Below, one piece after another: positions 56,392 through 64,000 of a stretch of DNA of 64,000 bases. Within the stretch, counting starts at the first letter, position 1, and each line of letters opens with the position of its first letter. Position numbers and translations under genes: made by a program. This stretch comes from Balneolales bacterium ANBcel1 (GTDB lineage: Bacteria; Bacteroidota; Rhodothermia; Balneolales; Natronogracilivirgulaceae): contig JARULB010000002.1 of NCBI GenBank assembly GCA_029688905.1, positions 186,001 to 250,000 of the forward strand, read 5' to 3'. The notes beneath the pieces are model-generated. The model searched no databases. It was not told where the DNA came from and worked only from the letters and a program-made list of their open reading frames with translations.

Positions 56392-57954
56392 CTACTCAAG
56401 GAGAAGGATTTTCCCGACGACACGGTCACCACCGGTTTTGATTTCGTAAAAAACGGTGCCGTTGGCGACTTTTCGGCCCTGCTGATCGGTGCCATCCCAG
56501 TAGGCTTCAAACGTGCCGCGCTCCATCATGGAGCGTTTGTCCAGAGTGCGAATCAGGTTCATGCCGAAATCATAAAGACGGATGGTCACGTCCGATGGAG
56601 ACGCATTTGAAAACCGGATACGGACCACATCGTGATGGCGGGGTGAAAACGGGTTCGGGTAGGCATAGGCTTTGACAGCGGGCGCGCCATCCTGGTGCAG
56701 GTTTTCACCGGACAAGGGGAAGTTAACGCGTGTGATCGCCCAGGTGTCCCCAAAGTCAACGGTCGATGCCAGTCCGTCGCTGCTGCCGATCCATACCCGG
56801 TCATTTGCGGTGGCCACACTGTAATAGGTGGTATTTGAAGCAAATGCGGTATTCGGGCTTTGGATTTGGCTTATCTGGCGCCATGTGTCTCCGTTATCCC
56901 GGCTGATAAACACACCATTTCTTCCGGCAGCATAGATGGTTTCTCCCTGGAATCCGATGTCGTATATCCGTTCGCCAGTCAGATGCTTCTCGAAAGTATC
57001 CCCGCCGTCTCTGGTTACGACGATACCCTCGCGGTCGGTACCGGCCAGGGCAATCCAGTTGGTCATCCAGACAGCGTTGTCGAAGGAGTTTTCACGGATC
57101 GAAGTAATCCAGCTACCAAGGAGTCCGTGCGGACCATCGGATTGACGCACCTGGCGCCACCTGATACTGTCGGCAGGTGCAACCAGCGCGTTATCGGAAA
57201 TATTCAATCCGCCTGCGGTCCCTGCATAGACCGTTCCGTCAGCAGCTATCGCTACGGAAAAGCCAAGAAAGTTGAGATAATCATTCGACTGTTCCGATCC
57301 GCGAGGATCGATTGAAAAGCTGTAGTTATGATCCGGGTTAAGCTCATCCATGCCATAGGGGGGGAGCACAACCCGCTCCCAGGTCTGACCGAAATCGGTA
57401 CTGCGCCGAATGCCGGAGGCCCATCCGGCAAAAAAGACCACATCGCCACGAAAATCAACCATGTAGGGCGGCGATTGCTGGGGCACGATAACGGGAATTA
57501 TGTCGAGATCCTGGCCTCCATACCGGATGGTAGTATCGTCCGGATGATCGAGTGTCCTCGAGGTGTCTATCAGCTCCCAATTCAGTCCGCCGTTTTTTGA
57601 GACATAGAACCCCATTTGGGCCTGTACCGACTCACCGTTGGTGGGTTGATTGTACCCGACACCGGCGAATATCGTGTCACGGGCAAGGGCGATGGAAAAC
57701 AGACGGCCGCGCCCGTCGACGATGGAGTCCGCCTCATCGGGAAAATGCCAGTCAAATTCGTTGCCGACATTGTACATCAGCCGCGGACCAATCCACAGCG
57801 TGTCGCCGAATGCCCCCATATTTGATACTGAGTTTTGCGATATCGAATAATAGGGAGATGGCAATTGGCCGGGGTGGATCTGGCCGTTAGCGCCGGTTGC
57901 CGACAGGGCCGACAGGGCCGACAGCAAGAGAAGAAATATTGCGGGGTGTCTCAT
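56392..57954 (-). CDS. Secreted beta-propeller protein with FlgD-like C-terminal domain
   Basis: 520 residues. Signal peptide (about 1-24) has three LSA repeats. The body shows at least five Asp-box-like turns, such as NGGLNWE, DFGQTWE, DGGDTFE, DNGDTWR and DFGDTWA, as in sialidase- or photosynthesis-factor-type propellers. The C-terminal 90 residues are a FlgD-Ig-like domain (AYPNPFSP, then a closing GKILLLE), which in this group serves type IX secretion and surface attachment. Likely an exported surface protein. It overlaps the lipoprotein gene by 4 bp. Confidence 0.75.
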   Translation of the reverse strand: MRHPAIFLLLLSALSALSATGANGQIHPGQLPSPYYSISQNSVSNMGAFGDTLWIGPRLMYNVGNEFDWHFPDEADSIVDGRGRLFSIALARDTIFAGVGYNQPTNGESVQAQMGFYVSKNGGLNWELIDTSRTLDHPDDTTIRYGGQDLDIIPVIVPQQSPPYMVDFRGDVVFFAGWASGIRRSTDFGQTWERVVLPPYGMDELNPDHNYSFSIDPRGSEQSNDYLNFLGFSVAIAADGTVYAGTAGGLNISDNALVAPADSIRWRQVRQSDGPHGLLGSWITSIRENSFDNAVWMTNWIALAGTDREGIVVTRDGGDTFEKHLTGERIYDIGFQGETIYAAGRNGVFISRDNGDTWRQISQIQSPNTAFASNTTYYSVATANDRVWIGSSDGLASTVDFGDTWAITRVNFPLSGENLHQDGAPAVKAYAYPNPFSPRHHDVVRIRFSNASPSDVTIRLYDFGMNLIRTLDKRSMMERGTFEAYWDGTDQQGRKVANGTVFYEIKTGGDRVVGKILLLE

Positions 57955-58727
57955 TCTACAAATTCAAAAGTTGATCGAAGCGTATCGCTCCGGATACCAA
58001 GAACATTCACCGCTTGCACTTCGACGGTATAGGTATCGGGCCGGTTGTTCTGGTTCACACTGAAGTTCTGTACATAAATGCCTGCACTTTGGCTGCCCAT
58101 TTGCGAGGCAAAAATCCGGTTCCTGGCACTGTCGTACAACTCCAGTCGTACGCTCTGGATGAAGTCAAGCGAATGGGGGTGTCCGACCCTGGCGATGATA
58201 TTGAAGTTGGTCTGACCGGCAGCGGGTATCCGAACGGATTGGGGGTGTTCCAGGCTCAAAATTTCCGGCTCTCCGATATTTTCCCAACGGACACGCAGCC
58301 GGGTTTCAACACGGTCACCGATGCGCTGATCCCTGGTCTGGGGAAAGACATATACCACCAGGTCGTCAAAGGAGCTGGTTTGCCCCACCATCTGCAGTTC
58401 GGCCCGGTATTTGCGCGGATCGGATTCAACGGACAACAATGTGTCCGAAGCCAGAACACTGCTCTCCTGAAGCGAGTAAATTCTGGCTACAAGGCGGGAA
58501 TCTTCGGGCAGGTCGCTTTTTGCGGATATACTGATCGTGATGGTCGTATCGCGCACCCCATCCTCACCGGTAAAGGTGAGCTCCCTTGGATGGACTTCAA
58601 GCTCCTCGATAACCGGGGAATAATCGAAGACGCCGACAGGGCCATCGGCGCTATCGCAGGAAACAAGAAAAAGCACGGCTGCAACAGCGTACGCCGCACA
58701 AAAGGGGAACTTTTGGGAATGTCTCAA
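57951..58727 (-). CDS. Outer-envelope lipoprotein of unknown function
   Basis: 258 residues starting with TTG at 58727; no ATG is available upstream. Signal peptide with lipobox LVSC, so the mature protein starts at the lipid-modified Cys, followed by DSADGP. The rest is beta-rich, about two Ig-like repeats (about 35-135 and 145-258, each beginning with a Pro-rich strand such as SPVIEELEVHP and EPEILSLEHP). First gene of the operon lipoprotein-propeller-PorV-like-PorV-like, which suggests a joint surface complex. Confidence 0.7.
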   Translation of the reverse strand: MRHSQKFPFCAAYAVAAVLFLVSCDSADGPVGVFDYSPVIEELEVHPRELTFTGEDGVRDTTITISISAKSDLPEDSRLVARIYSLQESSVLASDTLLSVESDPRKYRAELQMVGQTSSFDDLVVYVFPQTRDQRIGDRVETRLRVRWENIGEPEILSLEHPQSVRIPAAGQTNFNIIARVGHPHSLDFIQSVRLELYDSARNRIFASQMGSQSAGIYVQNFSVNQNNRPDTYTVEVQAVNVLGIRSDTLRSTFEFVE

Positions 58728-59060: not shown

Positions 59061-59091
59061 TTGCATCGCTTATCGGGGATGTGTAACTTTG
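59061..59091 (+). promoter_or_regulatory. Promoter of the trp operon (TTG-N20-TAACTTTG)
   Basis: TTG (59061-59063), exactly 20 nt, TAACTTTG (59084-59091), an exact Bacteroidota -33/-7 match. The expected start is about 4-7 nt after the -7 box, at or next to the leader-peptide ATG at 59097. Confidence 0.7.
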
Positions 59092-59096
59092 CCAAC

Positions 59097-59147
59097 ATGA
59101 AAAACGGAAACGTACATACAGCCAACTGGTGGTGGCCAATCTGCTGA
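59097..59147 (+). CDS. trpL: trp operon leader peptide
   Basis: A 16-codon ORF, MKNGNVHTANWWWPIC, with three consecutive TGG codons at 59127-59135 and a TGA at 59145-59147. It is the sensor of a ribosome-stalling attenuator: when charged tRNA-Trp is scarce, the ribosome halts on the Trp codons. The stop codon lies inside segment 2 of the attenuator, so a ribosome that finishes the peptide covers segment 2. An in-frame ATG at 59079 could extend it by six residues only if transcription began upstream of the predicted promoter. Confidence 0.85.
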   Translation: MKNGNVHTANWWWPIC

Positions 59148-59205
59148 AAGCGGATTGATACCGGTATGTACTGTACCCGTCAATGAGTATACAACCCGCT
59201 TTCAG
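59144..59205 (+). promoter_or_regulatory. trp attenuator antiterminator
   Basis: CTGAAAGCGG (59144-59153) is perfectly complementary over 10 bp to CCGCTTTCAG (59196-59205). The second segment is shared with the terminator stem, so the two structures exclude each other. The 42-nt loop includes the palindrome ATACCGGTAT (59158-59167). Confidence 0.8.
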
Positions 59206-59230
59206 TTTATCTGGGAGCGGGTTTTTTTTT
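59193..59230 (+). terminator. trp attenuator terminator
   Basis: AACCCGCT (59193-59200), 15-nt loop, AGCGGGTT (59216-59223) and an uninterrupted T run to 59230. It would end transcription 60 bp before trpE when Trp is plentiful. Confidence 0.88.
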
Positions 59231-59290: not shown

Positions 59291-60832
59291 ATGAATCGTG
59301 ACACTTTTTTGAAGCTGGCCGGCAACTATACCGCAATACCCGTCTACCGGGTGATGATGGCCGACACCTTCACCCCGGTATCCCTGTTTCTGAAAATCCG
59401 TGAAGACGGCCGCTTTCCGTTTCTGCTCGAATCCGTTGAAGGGGGTGAGCACCTTGCCCGCTATTCGTTTCTGGGGAGAAACCCCTATCAGATTTTGAAG
59501 TATCACAACGACCAGGTGCAGTTGCTCAGGAAGAAGACGGATCAGACGAACGCCGCATTCGAAATGACCGGCAGTGAGACCGGCAGCAGCTCCGGATCGT
59601 CCGGAGAACAGGAGTTCGCCACCACCATCCTGGAGGAACCCTATTTTGATGCGCTGAAACGTCTGTGCATGTCATATGACGAGCCTAAAATTCCGGACAT
59701 GCCCAGGCTCACGGGCGGTGCCGTCGGTTTTTCCGCCTACGACACGGTGCGGCAGATTGAACTGTTGCCGGACATGCCTCCCGATGACCTTGAGCTGCCG
59801 GAGGCGATATGGTCATTTTATGATGAAATCTTCGCCTTTGACCACGTCAAGCACCGTGTGGTACTGATCAAAACCGTTTTCACCACACCTGACGCCGATC
59901 ACGAGACTCAATACAGGACGGCCTGCAACGCCCTGGATCGGATGGAAGAGATCGTGGGCCGGAGTGTTGAAGATAAAGGGACCTACCGGAAAACAACCGA
60001 CCGTCTGCAAAGCAATATCTCCAAAGAGGCGTTTCTCGATAATGTCGATAAGGCGAGAGAATACATCTATGCGGGCGATATTTTCCAGGTTGTTCTTTCA
60101 CAGCGTTTTGCCAGTTCCTTCGAAGGTGACCGGTTCATGCTCTACCGCGCGCTCAGAATGGTAAATCCTTCACCATACCTCTATTATCTGGACTTCGACG
60201 ATTTCGCCCTGGTCGGCTCTTCACCGGAAGTTCTTGTACAGGTTCAGGATGAACAGGTGCGGCTGCTCCCGATCGCAGGAACACGTCCACGCGGCGACTC
60301 AGCAGAACAGGACGTAGCCTACGAGGAAGAGCTGAAAGCGGATCCCAAAGAGCTTGCCGAACACATTATGCTGGTTGACCTGGGCCGCAACGACCTGTCG
60401 CGGGTTTGCCGACCCGACACTGTGCGCCTGACCCGCGACCGTGTCATTGAACGATATTCCCATGTCATGCACATTGTATCTGATGTTAGCGGGCGGCTGA
60501 TGAAGGATAAAACGGCCGTTGATGCCCTGATAAACTGTTTTCCGGCAGGAACGGTTTCCGGGGCTCCCAAGGTTCGCGCGATGGAAATCATCGACGAGCT
60601 GGAAACGGGCAAACGGGGCCCCTATGCCGGAGCCGTGGGTTATTTCGATTTCTCCGGCAACATGGATACCTGTATTGCCATCCGAACCATGGTGGTTACC
60701 CACAGCGACATCTACATCCAGGCAGGGGCCGGTGTTGTCGCCGACAGCGATCCGGAACGTGAGTACGAAGAAACCGTCAACAAGGCGAAGGCGCTTGTGA
60801 AAGCGCTGGATATTGCGCTTCAACTGGAATAG
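59291..60832 (+). CDS. trpE: Anthranilate synthase component I
   Basis: 513 residues: forms anthranilate from chorismate with ammonia from TrpG, first committed step of Trp synthesis. The N-terminal LLESVEGGEHLARYSFLG includes LLES (45-48), the region that binds feedback Trp in known TrpE. The catalytic part has GDIFQVVLSQRF, IAGTRPRG, HIMLVDLGRNDLSRV, FPAGTVSGAPK and QAGAGVVADSDPE. A polar Ser- and Gly-rich stretch (about 95-105) is a variable loop. Expression should follow the attenuator. A GC-rich hairpin (60835-60858) starts right after the stop. Confidence 0.95.
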   Translation: MNRDTFLKLAGNYTAIPVYRVMMADTFTPVSLFLKIREDGRFPFLLESVEGGEHLARYSFLGRNPYQILKYHNDQVQLLRKKTDQTNAAFEMTGSETGSSSGSSGEQEFATTILEEPYFDALKRLCMSYDEPKIPDMPRLTGGAVGFSAYDTVRQIELLPDMPPDDLELPEAIWSFYDEIFAFDHVKHRVVLIKTVFTTPDADHETQYRTACNALDRMEEIVGRSVEDKGTYRKTTDRLQSNISKEAFLDNVDKAREYIYAGDIFQVVLSQRFASSFEGDRFMLYRALRMVNPSPYLYYLDFDDFALVGSSPEVLVQVQDEQVRLLPIAGTRPRGDSAEQDVAYEEELKADPKELAEHIMLVDLGRNDLSRVCRPDTVRLTRDRVIERYSHVMHIVSDVSGRLMKDKTAVDALINCFPAGTVSGAPKVRAMEIIDELETGKRGPYAGAVGYFDFSGNMDTCIAIRTMVVTHSDIYIQAGAGVVADSDPEREYEETVNKAKALVKALDIALQLE

Positions 60833-60956: not shown

Positions 60957-61961
60957 ATGACCTCCAACAAACCAACCATTCTCTCCGGTATTCAGCCTTC
61001 CGGCAGACTCCATCTGGGAAATTATTTCGGTGCCATTCGTCAGCACCTGGAATTCCAGGACAGGGGAGAGGCCTTTTACTTTATCGCCAACTACCATTCA
61101 CTGACATCCCTGCAAAACGGCGAACTTCTTAGACAGTACACCTTTGACGTCGCCCTGGATTATCTGGCACTGGGCATGGACCCCGAAAAGTGCACCTTCT
61201 TCGCCCAAAGTGATGTTCCCCAGGTTTTGGAACTGTCATGGATACTGGGAACCCTCACGCCGGTGAGCCTCATGGAAAAAGGGGTCTCCTACAAGGACAA
61301 GGTCGCCCAGGGCCTGCAACCCAATATCGGCCTGTTCACCTATCCGGTACTTCAGGCCGCCGACATCCTGATTTACCATTCCGATATTGTTCCGGTAGGA
61401 GCCGATCAGAAGCAGAATATCGAGATTTCCCGCGACCTTGCCGCGCGTTTCAACCGAATATATGACGGGGAGTATCTCCGTATCCCCGAACCGCATATCG
61501 TGGAATCGGTGGCCACGGTGCCGGGAATCGACGGCCGGAAAATGAGCAAGTCCTACGACAATACCATCGATATCTTCGACTCCGGCAAATCCCTGAAAAA
61601 GAAGGTTATGGCGGTTCAAACCGACTCGACCCCGCTTGAGGAGCCGAAAGATCCGGATACATGCAATGTCTTTGCGCTCATCAAGCTTTTTGCGACAGAC
61701 GAGAAGAGGGATGAAATAAGGGAAAAATATCTTTCCGGCGGATACGGTTACGGCCATGCCAAGAAGGAGCTGCTTCAACTCATTGATGATATGTTCGCCG
61801 AAGCGCGTGAGCGGAGGATGGAGCTGGCCTCCGATCCGGACTCGGTCAGGGACATGCTCAGCGATGGCGGCAAGAAAGCCAGAATCCGGGCGGAAACCGT
61901 TATGGAAGGGGTCAGGGAGGCTACCGGAGTCGTCCGGCACTTCGCTATTTCCAAATCCTGA
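60957..61961 (+). CDS. trpS: Tryptophanyl-tRNA synthetase
   Basis: 334 residues, class I synthetase: PSGRLHLGNYFG supplies the HIGH-type signature (HLGN, 19-22), KMSKS is at 195-199, and YPVLQAADILIY with VPVGADQKQ lines the Trp pocket. Charges tRNA-Trp. It lies within the trp operon between trpE and trpG, so the attenuator that senses Trp-tRNA would also set the level of its charging enzyme. Confidence 0.95.
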   Translation: MTSNKPTILSGIQPSGRLHLGNYFGAIRQHLEFQDRGEAFYFIANYHSLTSLQNGELLRQYTFDVALDYLALGMDPEKCTFFAQSDVPQVLELSWILGTLTPVSLMEKGVSYKDKVAQGLQPNIGLFTYPVLQAADILIYHSDIVPVGADQKQNIEISRDLAARFNRIYDGEYLRIPEPHIVESVATVPGIDGRKMSKSYDNTIDIFDSGKSLKKKVMAVQTDSTPLEEPKDPDTCNVFALIKLFATDEKRDEIREKYLSGGYGYGHAKKELLQLIDDMFAEARERRMELASDPDSVRDMLSDGGKKARIRAETVMEGVREATGVVRHFAISKS

Positions 61962-62009: not shown

Positions 62010-62576
62010 ATGGTTTTAATCATTGACAACTACGACTCTTTCACCTACAACCTGGTGCACCTGGTGGCCCGGCACACCGATGACTACCGGGTGGTGAGAA
62101 ACGACAAAATCACCTCCGGTGAAATCCGCCGGATCAGTCCTGAAAAGATACTGATATCCCCCGGTCCGGGCCGGCCGGAAGATGCCGGCATCACCGAAGA
62201 GGTGATTCAAACGTTTGGCGAGGATACCTCCATTCTGGGAGTATGTCTTGGCCATCAGGCGATCGGACACGCGTTCGGTGCAGATGTGATTTCAGCACCA
62301 TCGCTGATGCACGGAAAAACCTCCCGCATACGTCACGACGAATCTTCTCTGTACCAAAATGTGTCTCAATTGTTTACGGCCACACGTTACCACTCGCTGG
62401 TCCTGGATGAACCGACCATTCCGGATGATTTTCTGATCACTTCCCGAACGGAAGATGGCGTGGTAATGGGGATTCGGCATAAAAAGCATCCTCTGGAAGG
62501 GATTCAATTCCATCCGGAGAGCATTCTCACGACAGAAGGTCCGCGCCTTATCGAAAACTGGATGAAGCGCACCTGA
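62010..62576 (+). CDS. trpG: Anthranilate synthase component II (glutamine amidotransferase)
   Basis: 188 residues, class-I glutamine amidotransferase. Catalytic triad C79 (GVCLGHQ), H168 and E170 (FHPES); SPGPGRPEDAG is the oxyanion-loop region. Hands ammonia to TrpE. It is not fused to TrpD. In some bacteria the same protein also serves folate synthesis; no pab genes are in the window. Confidence 0.95.
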   Translation: MVLIIDNYDSFTYNLVHLVARHTDDYRVVRNDKITSGEIRRISPEKILISPGPGRPEDAGITEEVIQTFGEDTSILGVCLGHQAIGHAFGADVISAPSLMHGKTSRIRHDESSLYQNVSQLFTATRYHSLVLDEPTIPDDFLITSRTEDGVVMGIRHKKHPLEGIQFHPESILTTEGPRLIENWMKRT

Positions 62577-62607: not shown

Positions 62608-63639
62608 ATGAACGATTTTACTGAAATCCTCCAGCAGTTGTCTGAAGGAGCTGATTTGTCGCCCGAACAGGCGGATTTTGCTCTCAGGGAGATTATTGCA
62701 GGCAATGTAAACGGCTCCAGGACCGCCGCCTTTCTGTATGGCATGCGCTGCAAGGGAGAGACGGTGGATGAGCTTTCGGCGCTGGTCGGCGTGATGCGTG
62801 GTGCGGCTGTTGCCGTCGATGTAAATACCGAAAATGCCGTAGATCTGTGCGGGACGGGCGGTGACCGTTCAGGCACGTTCAATATCTCTACCGCCGCCAT
62901 GTTTGTTGTTGCCGGCGCAGAGGTTCCTGTGCTCAAACACGGCAATTCCGGCGTATCCAGCCGAAGCGGCAGCTTTGACGTTCTGAAAGCGCTGGGAGTC
63001 CATCCCGACCTCAACAAGGAGCAGGTAGAGACCTGCTTTCGCGAAACCGGAATGGCCTTCATGTTCGCTCCGCTGTTTCATCCCGCCATGGCGCGGGTGA
63101 TGAACGCTCGCAAGGAGCTCGGACTGCGTACCTTCTTCAACATCATGGGGCCATTGCTCAATCCCGCGGGAGTCACCCGGCAGGTCGCAGGTGCCTATGA
63201 TGCCGAGACGGCGCGAATGATGGCACGCATCCTCGGCAGACTGGGGACGGATTTCGCCTATACCGTGCATTCCGATGACGGTCTGGATGAGTTTTCGACC
63301 ACTTCCGGCTCCCGGATTTTTCTGTTGAACGGAAACGGGGAGCCTCAGGAGCGATCCTTCGACCCGCGTACCCTGGGAATGGAACTGACAGAGATCGATC
63401 AGTTGAAAGGCGGCACGCCGGAAGAGAACGCGGACATCATCCGGGCCATACTGGATGACAGAGCCACCGATGCCCAGCAGGATATCGTATTGCTTAATGC
63501 CACATTCGCCATTCACGCATCCGGACTCTGTTCCGACATTCAGGACGCCTTGCTGGCCGCAAGGGAGAGCCTTGAGTCGGGCGAAGCCCTGAATGCCCTG
63601 AACCGGTTCGCCGAGTGTACCACCGACCTTGCATCCTAA
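62608..63639 (+). CDS. trpD: Anthranilate phosphoribosyltransferase
   Basis: 343 residues: joins anthranilate to PRPP. DLCGTGGDRSGTFNISTAA is the PRPP-binding loop, KHGNSGVSSRSGSFDVL the diphosphate region, and FMFAPLFHPAM with RTFFNIMGPLLNPA the anthranilate tunnel. Starts 31 bp after trpG. Confidence 0.95.
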   Translation: MNDFTEILQQLSEGADLSPEQADFALREIIAGNVNGSRTAAFLYGMRCKGETVDELSALVGVMRGAAVAVDVNTENAVDLCGTGGDRSGTFNISTAAMFVVAGAEVPVLKHGNSGVSSRSGSFDVLKALGVHPDLNKEQVETCFRETGMAFMFAPLFHPAMARVMNARKELGLRTFFNIMGPLLNPAGVTRQVAGAYDAETARMMARILGRLGTDFAYTVHSDDGLDEFSTTSGSRIFLLNGNGEPQERSFDPRTLGMELTEIDQLKGGTPEENADIIRAILDDRATDAQQDIVLLNATFAIHASGLCSDIQDALLAARESLESGEALNALNRFAECTTDLAS

Positions 63640-63691: not shown

Positions 63692-64000
63692 GTGGCAAAT
63701 ATTCTTGATAAAATTGTTGATCAGACCCGTGAGGATATCGGGCGGCGCAGAAAGAAAGTCGCGCAGCACGACTTCCAGTCCTTCGCCGAATATCACCGCA
63801 CCAGGCGGGATTTTGGAGAGGCCCTGCGTGATACGGACCACGTATCGATCATCGCCGAAATAAAAAAGGCTTCCCCATCAAAAGGAGTTATCCGGGAGGA
63901 TTTTTCGCCGGTTATCCATGCCCGGGACTATCTGGAAAACGGCGCGTCGGCCATCTCGGTACTCACCGATGAGCCCTTCTTTCAGGGAACGCTCTCTTAT
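63692..64000 (+). CDS. trpC: Indole-3-glycerol-phosphate synthase, N-terminal part
   Basis: 103 residues visible, running off the window. It starts with GTG 63692 (ANILDKIVDQTREDI); no ATG is available. IIAEIKKASPSKGVI contains the first catalytic Lys and phosphate-binding residues, and ISVLTDEPFFQGTLSY the second Asp and Glu region. Fourth step of Trp synthesis. Order so far: trpE-trpS-trpG-trpD-trpC. Confidence 0.93.
   Translation, partial: MANILDKIVDQTREDIGRRRKKVAQHDFQSFAEYHRTRRDFGEALRDTDHVSIIAEIKKASPSKGVIREDFSPVIHARDYLENGASAISVLTDEPFFQGTLSY

What the first reader, a model, noticed from the sequence alone, without database searches (positions are those of the whole stretch)
59097..59230. 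Complete Trp-codon attenuator ahead of trpE in a Bacteroidota-type genome
All parts are visible: a 16-residue leader peptide with three adjacent Trp codons; a segment right after them (59144-59153) perfectly complementary over 10 bp to 59196-59205; and that second segment forming the left arm of an 8-bp terminator stem followed by a T run. The leader stop codon sits inside segment 2. This is ribosome-mediated attenuation, best known from Proteobacteria. The stall-protecting 1:2 hairpin is the only weak part (outer CAGC/GCTG and CCA/TGG pairings).
Basis: partly seen in the sequence, partly recalled or inferred. Interest (0 to 1): 0.8.

Follow-up and report, generated by a model that had tools for sequence, protein, structure and literature searches.

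The report
Tryptophan attenuator ahead of trpE
Just upstream of its tryptophan-making genes, this Balneolales bacterium (a relative of Bacteroidota) carries a complete tryptophan-sensing RNA switch of the textbook E. coli type, shared by nearly all its relatives, with a start codon that seems to sit at the very beginning of the RNA and one extra conserved hairpin arm.

Summary
The 16-codon leader MKNGNVHTANWWWPIC*, the 10-bp 2:3 antiterminator and the terminator are at the stated places. The terminator stem is 13 bp, not 8. The first gene downstream is trpE, followed by trpS-trpG-trpD-trpC.

Chance is excluded: 1 of 1500 shuffles gave even a weak look-alike. A Trp-doublet leader plus terminator precedes trpE in 66 of 67 Balneolales and 32 of 40 Rhodothermales regions, and Trp leaders recur across other Bacteroidota. 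Segments 2 and 3 change together between lineages. The genome has no detectable TrpR or T-box.

Two features go beyond the report. (1) A Bacteroidota-type promoter (TTGC...TAACTTTG) ends 5 nt before the leader ATG, so the leader is probably translated from a leaderless RNA; this layout is kept in 63/63 Balneolales tested. (2) A fourth helix, P0 (59112-59119/59164-59171), encloses 1:2 and covaries across Balneolales (z = 8.1), but not detectably in Rhodothermales.

Verdict: a classical ribosome-mediated Trp attenuator, a new member of a known kind, below the curated cut-offs of Rfam Trp_leader and Pfam Leader_Trp. Function is inferred; nothing was measured.

The parts
59061..59064 (+). -33 promoter element TTGC
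   Evidence: Sequence. A TTG/TTT element 16-21 nt upstream of the -7 box accompanies nearly all -7 boxes found in relatives.
59084..59091 (+). -7 promoter element TAACTTTG, an exact match to the Bacteroidota consensus TAnnTTTG
   Evidence: Sequence. TAnnTT lies 5-10 nt before the leader start in 63/63 Balneolales (shuffle mean 7.1, max 15) and 23/32 Rhodothermales (mean 1.1, max 4). The box occupies -12 to -5 in flavobacteria (PMC9723704), which puts +1 at about 59096.
59097..59147 (+). leader peptide ORF MKNGNVHTANWWWPIC*, inferred leaderless start
59127..59135 (+). three tandem Trp control codons
   Evidence: conserved in relatives
59112..59119 (+). P0 helix, 5' strand (GTACATAC), inside the leader ORF
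   Evidence: Pairs with 59164-59171; minimum-energy fold and RNAalifold; permutation test z 8.1 on 36 divergent sequences
59164..59171 (+). P0 helix, 3' strand (GTATGTAC)
59131..59145 (+). segment 1: outer GGTG 59131-59134 plus inner CAATCTGCT 59137-59145
59149..59162 (+). segment 2 as the 3' arm of the 1:2 hairpin: AGCGGATTG 59149-59157 plus TACC 59159-59162
59144..59153 (+). segment 2 as the 5' arm of the antiterminator (CTGAAAGCGG); holds the leader stop codon
   Evidence: 100% paired in 13 family members; permutation tests
59193..59205 (+). segment 3: 59196-59205 pairs with segment 2; 59193-59205 pairs with segment 4
59211..59223 (+). segment 4, 3' arm of the terminator; its end overlaps the T run 59222-59230
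59291..60832 (+). trpE, anthranilate synthase component I
   Evidence: NCBIfam TIGR00564 545.8 bits, over cut-off
60957..61961 (+). trpS, tryptophan-tRNA ligase
   Evidence: TIGR00233 285.7 bits, over cut-off; follows trpE in many relatives
62010..62576 (+). trpG, glutamine amidotransferase subunit
   Evidence: TIGR00566 216.2 bits, over cut-off
62608..63639 (+). trpD, anthranilate phosphoribosyltransferase
   Evidence: TIGR01245 354.3 bits, over cut-off
63692..64000 (+). start of a TrpC-like ORF that runs off the window
   Evidence: Open ORF; TrpC identity judged by eye from the sequence, not tested

Best explanation
A ribosome-mediated Trp attenuator controls trpE-trpS-trpG-trpD-trpC. Transcription starts within about 1-2 nt of the leader ATG (inferred), so ribosomes load on a leaderless RNA. 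With enough Trp-tRNA the ribosome reads the three Trp codons, reaches the UGA inside segment 2 and blocks 2:3; segments 3:4 then form the terminator. When Trp-tRNA is scarce the ribosome stalls on the Trp codons and covers segment 1, segment 2 is free to pair with segment 3, and RNA polymerase reads into trpE. Without a ribosome, or after its release, 1:2 locked by the enclosing P0 helix keeps segment 2 occupied, so the default is termination. Shown: the sequence parts, their conservation and covariation, and the predicted energies. Inferred: transcription start, stalling, switching and the role of P0.
For: All parts are present and correctly ordered. Before region 4 is transcribed, RNA left free by a ribosome stalled at Trp codon 1 or 2 folds into 2:3 (-24.8 and -24.4 kcal/mol); with the ribosome at the stop codon 2:3 is impossible and the terminator folds; without a ribosome P0 + 1:2 + 3:4 is the minimum. 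Leaders with Trp doublets and terminators ahead of trpE: 63 of 67 Balneolales by script plus L059, L067 and L068 by eye, and 32 of 40 Rhodothermales. Trp is by far the most frequent doublet residue found by the same detector. Segments 2 and 3 of the same genome pair better than permuted partners (19.1 against 15.2, maximum of 5000 permutations 16.7; pruned Balneolales z 7.5). No TrpR and no T-box found in this genome. Promoter geometry.
Against: No expression data. Within the window's own family the 2:3 helix is almost invariant and so silent about covariation; the support comes from between-family differences, which partly reflect shared ancestry. One Balneolales genome (L039) keeps a terminator but no Trp doublet was found. 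The detector picks region 2 by complementarity, which the permutation test only partly offsets.
Confidence: 0.93

Rival explanations
1. Same RNA parts, but control is mainly by whether the leaderless start is translated at all (initiation or growth-rate sensing), with Trp codons as a secondary signal.
For: The leader start appears leaderless and has no Shine-Dalgarno-like motif in nearly all relatives; 1:2 plus P0 gives termination as default without a ribosome.
Against: Tandem Trp codons are the most conserved part of the peptide while the rest varies, and the operon is Trp biosynthesis.
Confidence: 0.04
2. A chance short ORF beside an ordinary terminator belonging to the upstream gene.
For: An upstream ORF lies within 400 bp.
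Against: That ORF (57951-58727) is on the opposite strand and points away. Shuffles rarely reproduce the arrangement. It is conserved across two orders.
Confidence: 0.01
3. Control by another Trp sensor acting on the same terminator: T-box, TRAP protein or TrpR.
For: These control trp genes in other bacteria (established knowledge).
Against: No T-box (RF00230) or TrpR (PF01371) in this genome. TRAP was not searched for, but TRAP would not need a Trp-codon leader.
Confidence: 0.02

Closest known systems
E. coli trp attenuator (trpL-trpE)
   Same: Short leader with tandem Trp codons, 1:2, 2:3 and 3:4 helices, terminator with T run, trpE downstream (here; E. coli sequence; its helices from established knowledge). 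E. coli also has a 7-bp enclosing pairing, GGGTATC upstream of the ATG with GATACCC before segment 3.
   Different: E. coli has a 5' UTR upstream of trpL and uses TrpR as well (established knowledge). Here the leader start appears leaderless, TrpR is absent, and the enclosing P0 helix uses leader codons.
Sinorhizobium meliloti trpLE(G) attenuator
   Same: The terminated RNA starts with the ATG of trpL, so it can act as a leaderless mRNA, and the operon is controlled by attenuation alone (PMC7298713).
   Different: Alphaproteobacterium with split trp operons; its peptide also acts in trans. No such role was tested here.
Leader-peptide attenuation suggested in Flavobacterium psychrophilum
   Same: Bacteroidota; 'strong clues' for leader-peptide attenuation upstream of amino-acid biosynthesis operons (PMC9723704).
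   Different: The main text does not mention trp, and the organism belongs to another class.
Rfam RF00513 Trp_leader
   Same: Best-scoring sub-threshold Rfam match; covers the whole 100-position model at 59124-59230 (26.5 bits, E 0.0022).
   Different: Below the gathering score of 41; none of 20 related loci reaches it.

Membership tests
Ribosome-mediated Trp attenuators (functional class) | Leader ORF with tandem Trp codons upstream of trp genes | tested here: met
Ribosome-mediated Trp attenuators (functional class) | Intrinsic terminator 3:4 with T run | tested here: met
Ribosome-mediated Trp attenuators (functional class) | Mutually exclusive antiterminator 2:3 | tested here: met
   covariation between lineages
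Ribosome-mediated Trp attenuators (functional class) | 1:2 protector hairpin overlapping the control codons | tested here: met
Ribosome-mediated Trp attenuators (functional class) | Read-through rises when Trp-tRNA is scarce | not testable with these tools
   Needs expression data
Rfam RF00513 Trp_leader | Score at or above the gathering score (41 bits) | tested here: not met
   26.5 bits; no hit at gathering
Pfam PF08255 Leader_Trp | Peptide above the curated cut-off | tested here: not met
   No match in the whole genome; control rings in E. coli
T-box (RF00230) | T-box RNA in the genome | tested here: not met
   No match; control genomes ring
TrpR-controlled trp operon | TrpR repressor encoded | tested here: not met
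   PF01371 no match; controls ring

The most novel reading that the evidence does not exclude
Balneolales evolved a four-helix, leaderless version of the Trp attenuator: the P0 helix, built from the leader's own codons and the spacer after segment 2, closes once a ribosome has left or failed to load, which both locks termination and shuts further loading on the leaderless start.
Probability: 0.35. Interest if true: 0.55.

Novelty: new member of a known kind. Interest (0 to 1): 0.42.

Why it matters
Leader-peptide attenuation is usually described as a proteobacterial and actinobacterial device (PMC2965389); PMC3766115 suggests that the Rfam amino-acid attenuators originated in gammaproteobacteria with few transfers. 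Here it is the conserved trpE control across two orders and recurs through much of Bacteroidota, invisible to Rfam and Pfam at their cut-offs. Because few Bacteroidota mRNAs are leaderless (5.5% in F. psychrophilum, PMC9723704), a leader start at the RNA's 5' end kept across a whole order offers a natural system for asking how transcription-translation coupling works on leaderless RNA. Having trpS in the attenuated operon ties the charging of the sensed tRNA to the switch itself.

Tried and rejected
First scans missed a dozen relatives because minus-strand loci are not reoriented; corrected. A His-type attenuator upstream of hisG was looked for and not found in the 1.5 kb held. P0 in Rhodothermales: not supported (15.0 against 14.4 +/- 0.42). 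A reversed-strand control for P0 gave a mild z of 2.3, so the effect size of P0 should be read with that in mind. RNAalifold on the Balneolaceae-type alignment found only the terminator, probably because 1:2 and P0 shift register. Second Trp attenuator elsewhere in the genome: a pattern search gave one further hit in GC-rich sequence, not followed. The 2004 comparative study by Vitreschak and colleagues, which I recall as mentioning Bacteroidetes/Chlorobi attenuators, was not found in the library and could not be checked. Papers on Balneola attenuators: none.

Full report
What is there. The leader ORF 59097-59147 reads MKNGNVHTANWWWPIC and stops with TGA. Segment 59144-59153 is an exact 10-bp complement of 59196-59205. 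The terminator is a continuous 13-bp stem, 59193-59205 with 59211-59223, loop TTTAT, then a T run; it folds at about -21 kcal/mol with z -7.5. The stop codon lies at the apex of this hairpin, as expected of a classical attenuator.

Context. trpE (59291-60832), trpS (60957-61961), trpG and trpD follow on the same strand and a TrpC-like ORF runs off the window. The nearest upstream ORF with a plausible coding role (57951-58727) is on the other strand and points away, so the terminator is not its own. A TrpS-like frame follows trpE in all f1 loci read and many other Balneolales, but not in L016, L019-L023 or L028.

Who it is. The window is therefore a Balneolales genome; class-level relatives are Rhodothermales by the titles.

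Chance and conservation. In 1500 dinucleotide shuffles of the upstream kilobase, 2 held any Trp-doublet leader with terminator and none reached an antiterminator score of 16; the window scores 26.5. In real upstream regions the same detector finds a Trp doublet in 63 of 67 Balneolales and 32 of 40 Rhodothermales, more than any other residue; the next residues (Val, Asn) partly reflect the same leader ORFs. L059, L067 and L068 were added by eye because their T run or score fell below the threshold. L039 is the one Balneolales region without a Trp doublet. In 40 further regions, three from deep class-level families and the rest from other parts of the phylum, Trp-run leaders appear in about 24; many of these did not meet the full detector criteria, and a large family of 2-3-Mb genomes (f27) has none in the three regions read.

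Covariation. Within the window's family, segments 2 and 3 hardly vary, so the signal lies between families: CCGCTTTCAG/CTGAAAGCGG here, CCCACTGC/GCAGTGG(G) in Balneolaceae-type leaders, CCCACCGC/GCGGTGGG and CCCGTT/AACGGG in Rhodothermales. Own 2:3 pairs score 19.1 on 57 distinct arms against a permutation mean of 15.2 and maximum of 16.7; on 36 divergent Balneolales z is 7.5. The terminator stem shows compensatory changes at 5 pairs in the Balneolaceae-type alignment.

Two architectures. In the window's family the stop codon lies inside segment 2; in Balneolaceae-type and most Rhodothermales leaders the ORF runs through segment 2 and stops after it. Both fit the same logic: a ribosome that runs on to the stop masks segment 2.

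Leaderless start. TTGC (59061-59064) and TAACTTTG (59084-59091) match the Bacteroidota -33 and -7 elements. With the -7 box at -12 to -5 (PMC9723704) the predicted +1 is 59096, one base before the ATG. TAnnTT lies 5-10 nt before an in-frame leader start in 63/63 Balneolales (shuffle mean 7.1) and 23/32 Rhodothermales (mean 1.1); a Shine-Dalgarno-like motif was seen in one case. Start choice among in-frame codons was limited to 18 codons from the Trp run, so a few assignments may be wrong. S. meliloti trpL is the experimental precedent for a leaderless trp leader (PMC7298713).

The P0 helix. GTACATAC (59112-59119) pairs perfectly with GTATGTAC (59164-59171), outside 1:2. RNAalifold finds most of it independently in the family alignment. 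Across 63 Balneolales, best own pairing between the pre-Trp codons and the spacer after segment 2 scores 17.4 against 13.7 +/- 0.35 permuted; on 36 pruned sequences z is 8.1, the promoter-region control is -0.2, the complement control 0.9, the reversed control 2.3. Examples are AGCTCATAAAAAT/ATTTTTATGAGCT, ATCGTTCAA/TTGAACGAT and AACGTA/TACGTT. Within the 13-member family alone the own score (17.7) exceeds the permuted mean (15.9 +/- 0.56) by about three standard deviations. It is not detected in Rhodothermales. E. coli has a comparable enclosing pairing that uses its 5' UTR; I recall, without having checked it, that this pairing was reported to limit leader peptide synthesis. The most likely role here is to hold 1:2 closed when no ribosome is on the leader, so that the default is termination.

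Mechanism and alternatives. Predicted folds match the model at each ribosome position. At full equilibrium the terminator wins even with a stalled ribosome, so, as in E. coli, the switch must work kinetically, with 2:3 forming before segment 4 is made; no pause site was tested. TrpR and T-box were not found. Rfam Trp_leader and Pfam Leader_Trp fall below their cut-offs, so it works like a Trp leader but is not a member of those families as they are defined.

Novelty. The mechanism is known. What appears undescribed, as far as the held library shows, is its near-universal presence ahead of trpE in Balneolales and Rhodothermales, its leaderless layout and the P0 helix. The earlier statement that no leader-peptide system was shown outside Proteobacteria and Actinobacteria (PMC2965389, 2010) has since been softened by a flavobacterial study (PMC9723704).

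Noticed in passing
window 60957-61961; L001-L030, L111-L113: trpS sits right after trpE in many Balneolales, so the charging enzyme for the sensed tRNA would be under the same attenuator; L016, L019-L023 and L028 lack it at that place.
   Followed up: partly
L039 (G041), about 383 nt before the end of the oriented stretch: A Balneolales trpE upstream region that keeps a CCCG-type terminator and an AGCGG segment but shows no Trp doublet; possible decay or change of the leader.
   Followed up: partly
L138, L160, L180 (Candidatus Poribacteria), 700-850 nt before the end of the stretch read, upstream of the trpE match: Three similar short ORFs of the form ..SHSxLHxxSNxxHWW.. each followed by a strong terminator (GCCTTATGCAC...GCATAAGG); looks like a conserved leader rich in His and Trp, probably with a gene between it and trpE.
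   Followed up: no
L161 (Desulfobacteria), about 254 nt before the end of the stretch read: Leader MLGYLTVQFGNSAWSWWWSSGRVCLPPER followed by two terminator-like hairpins upstream of trpE.
   Followed up: no
L193-L230, other Bacteroidota: Trp-run leaders upstream of trpE (for example MNNILNNTWWWSNLRRKS, MKIQNNQTWWWHTNSFGVL) occur in many families, but not in the three regions read from family f27 (2-3-Mb genomes).
   Followed up: partly
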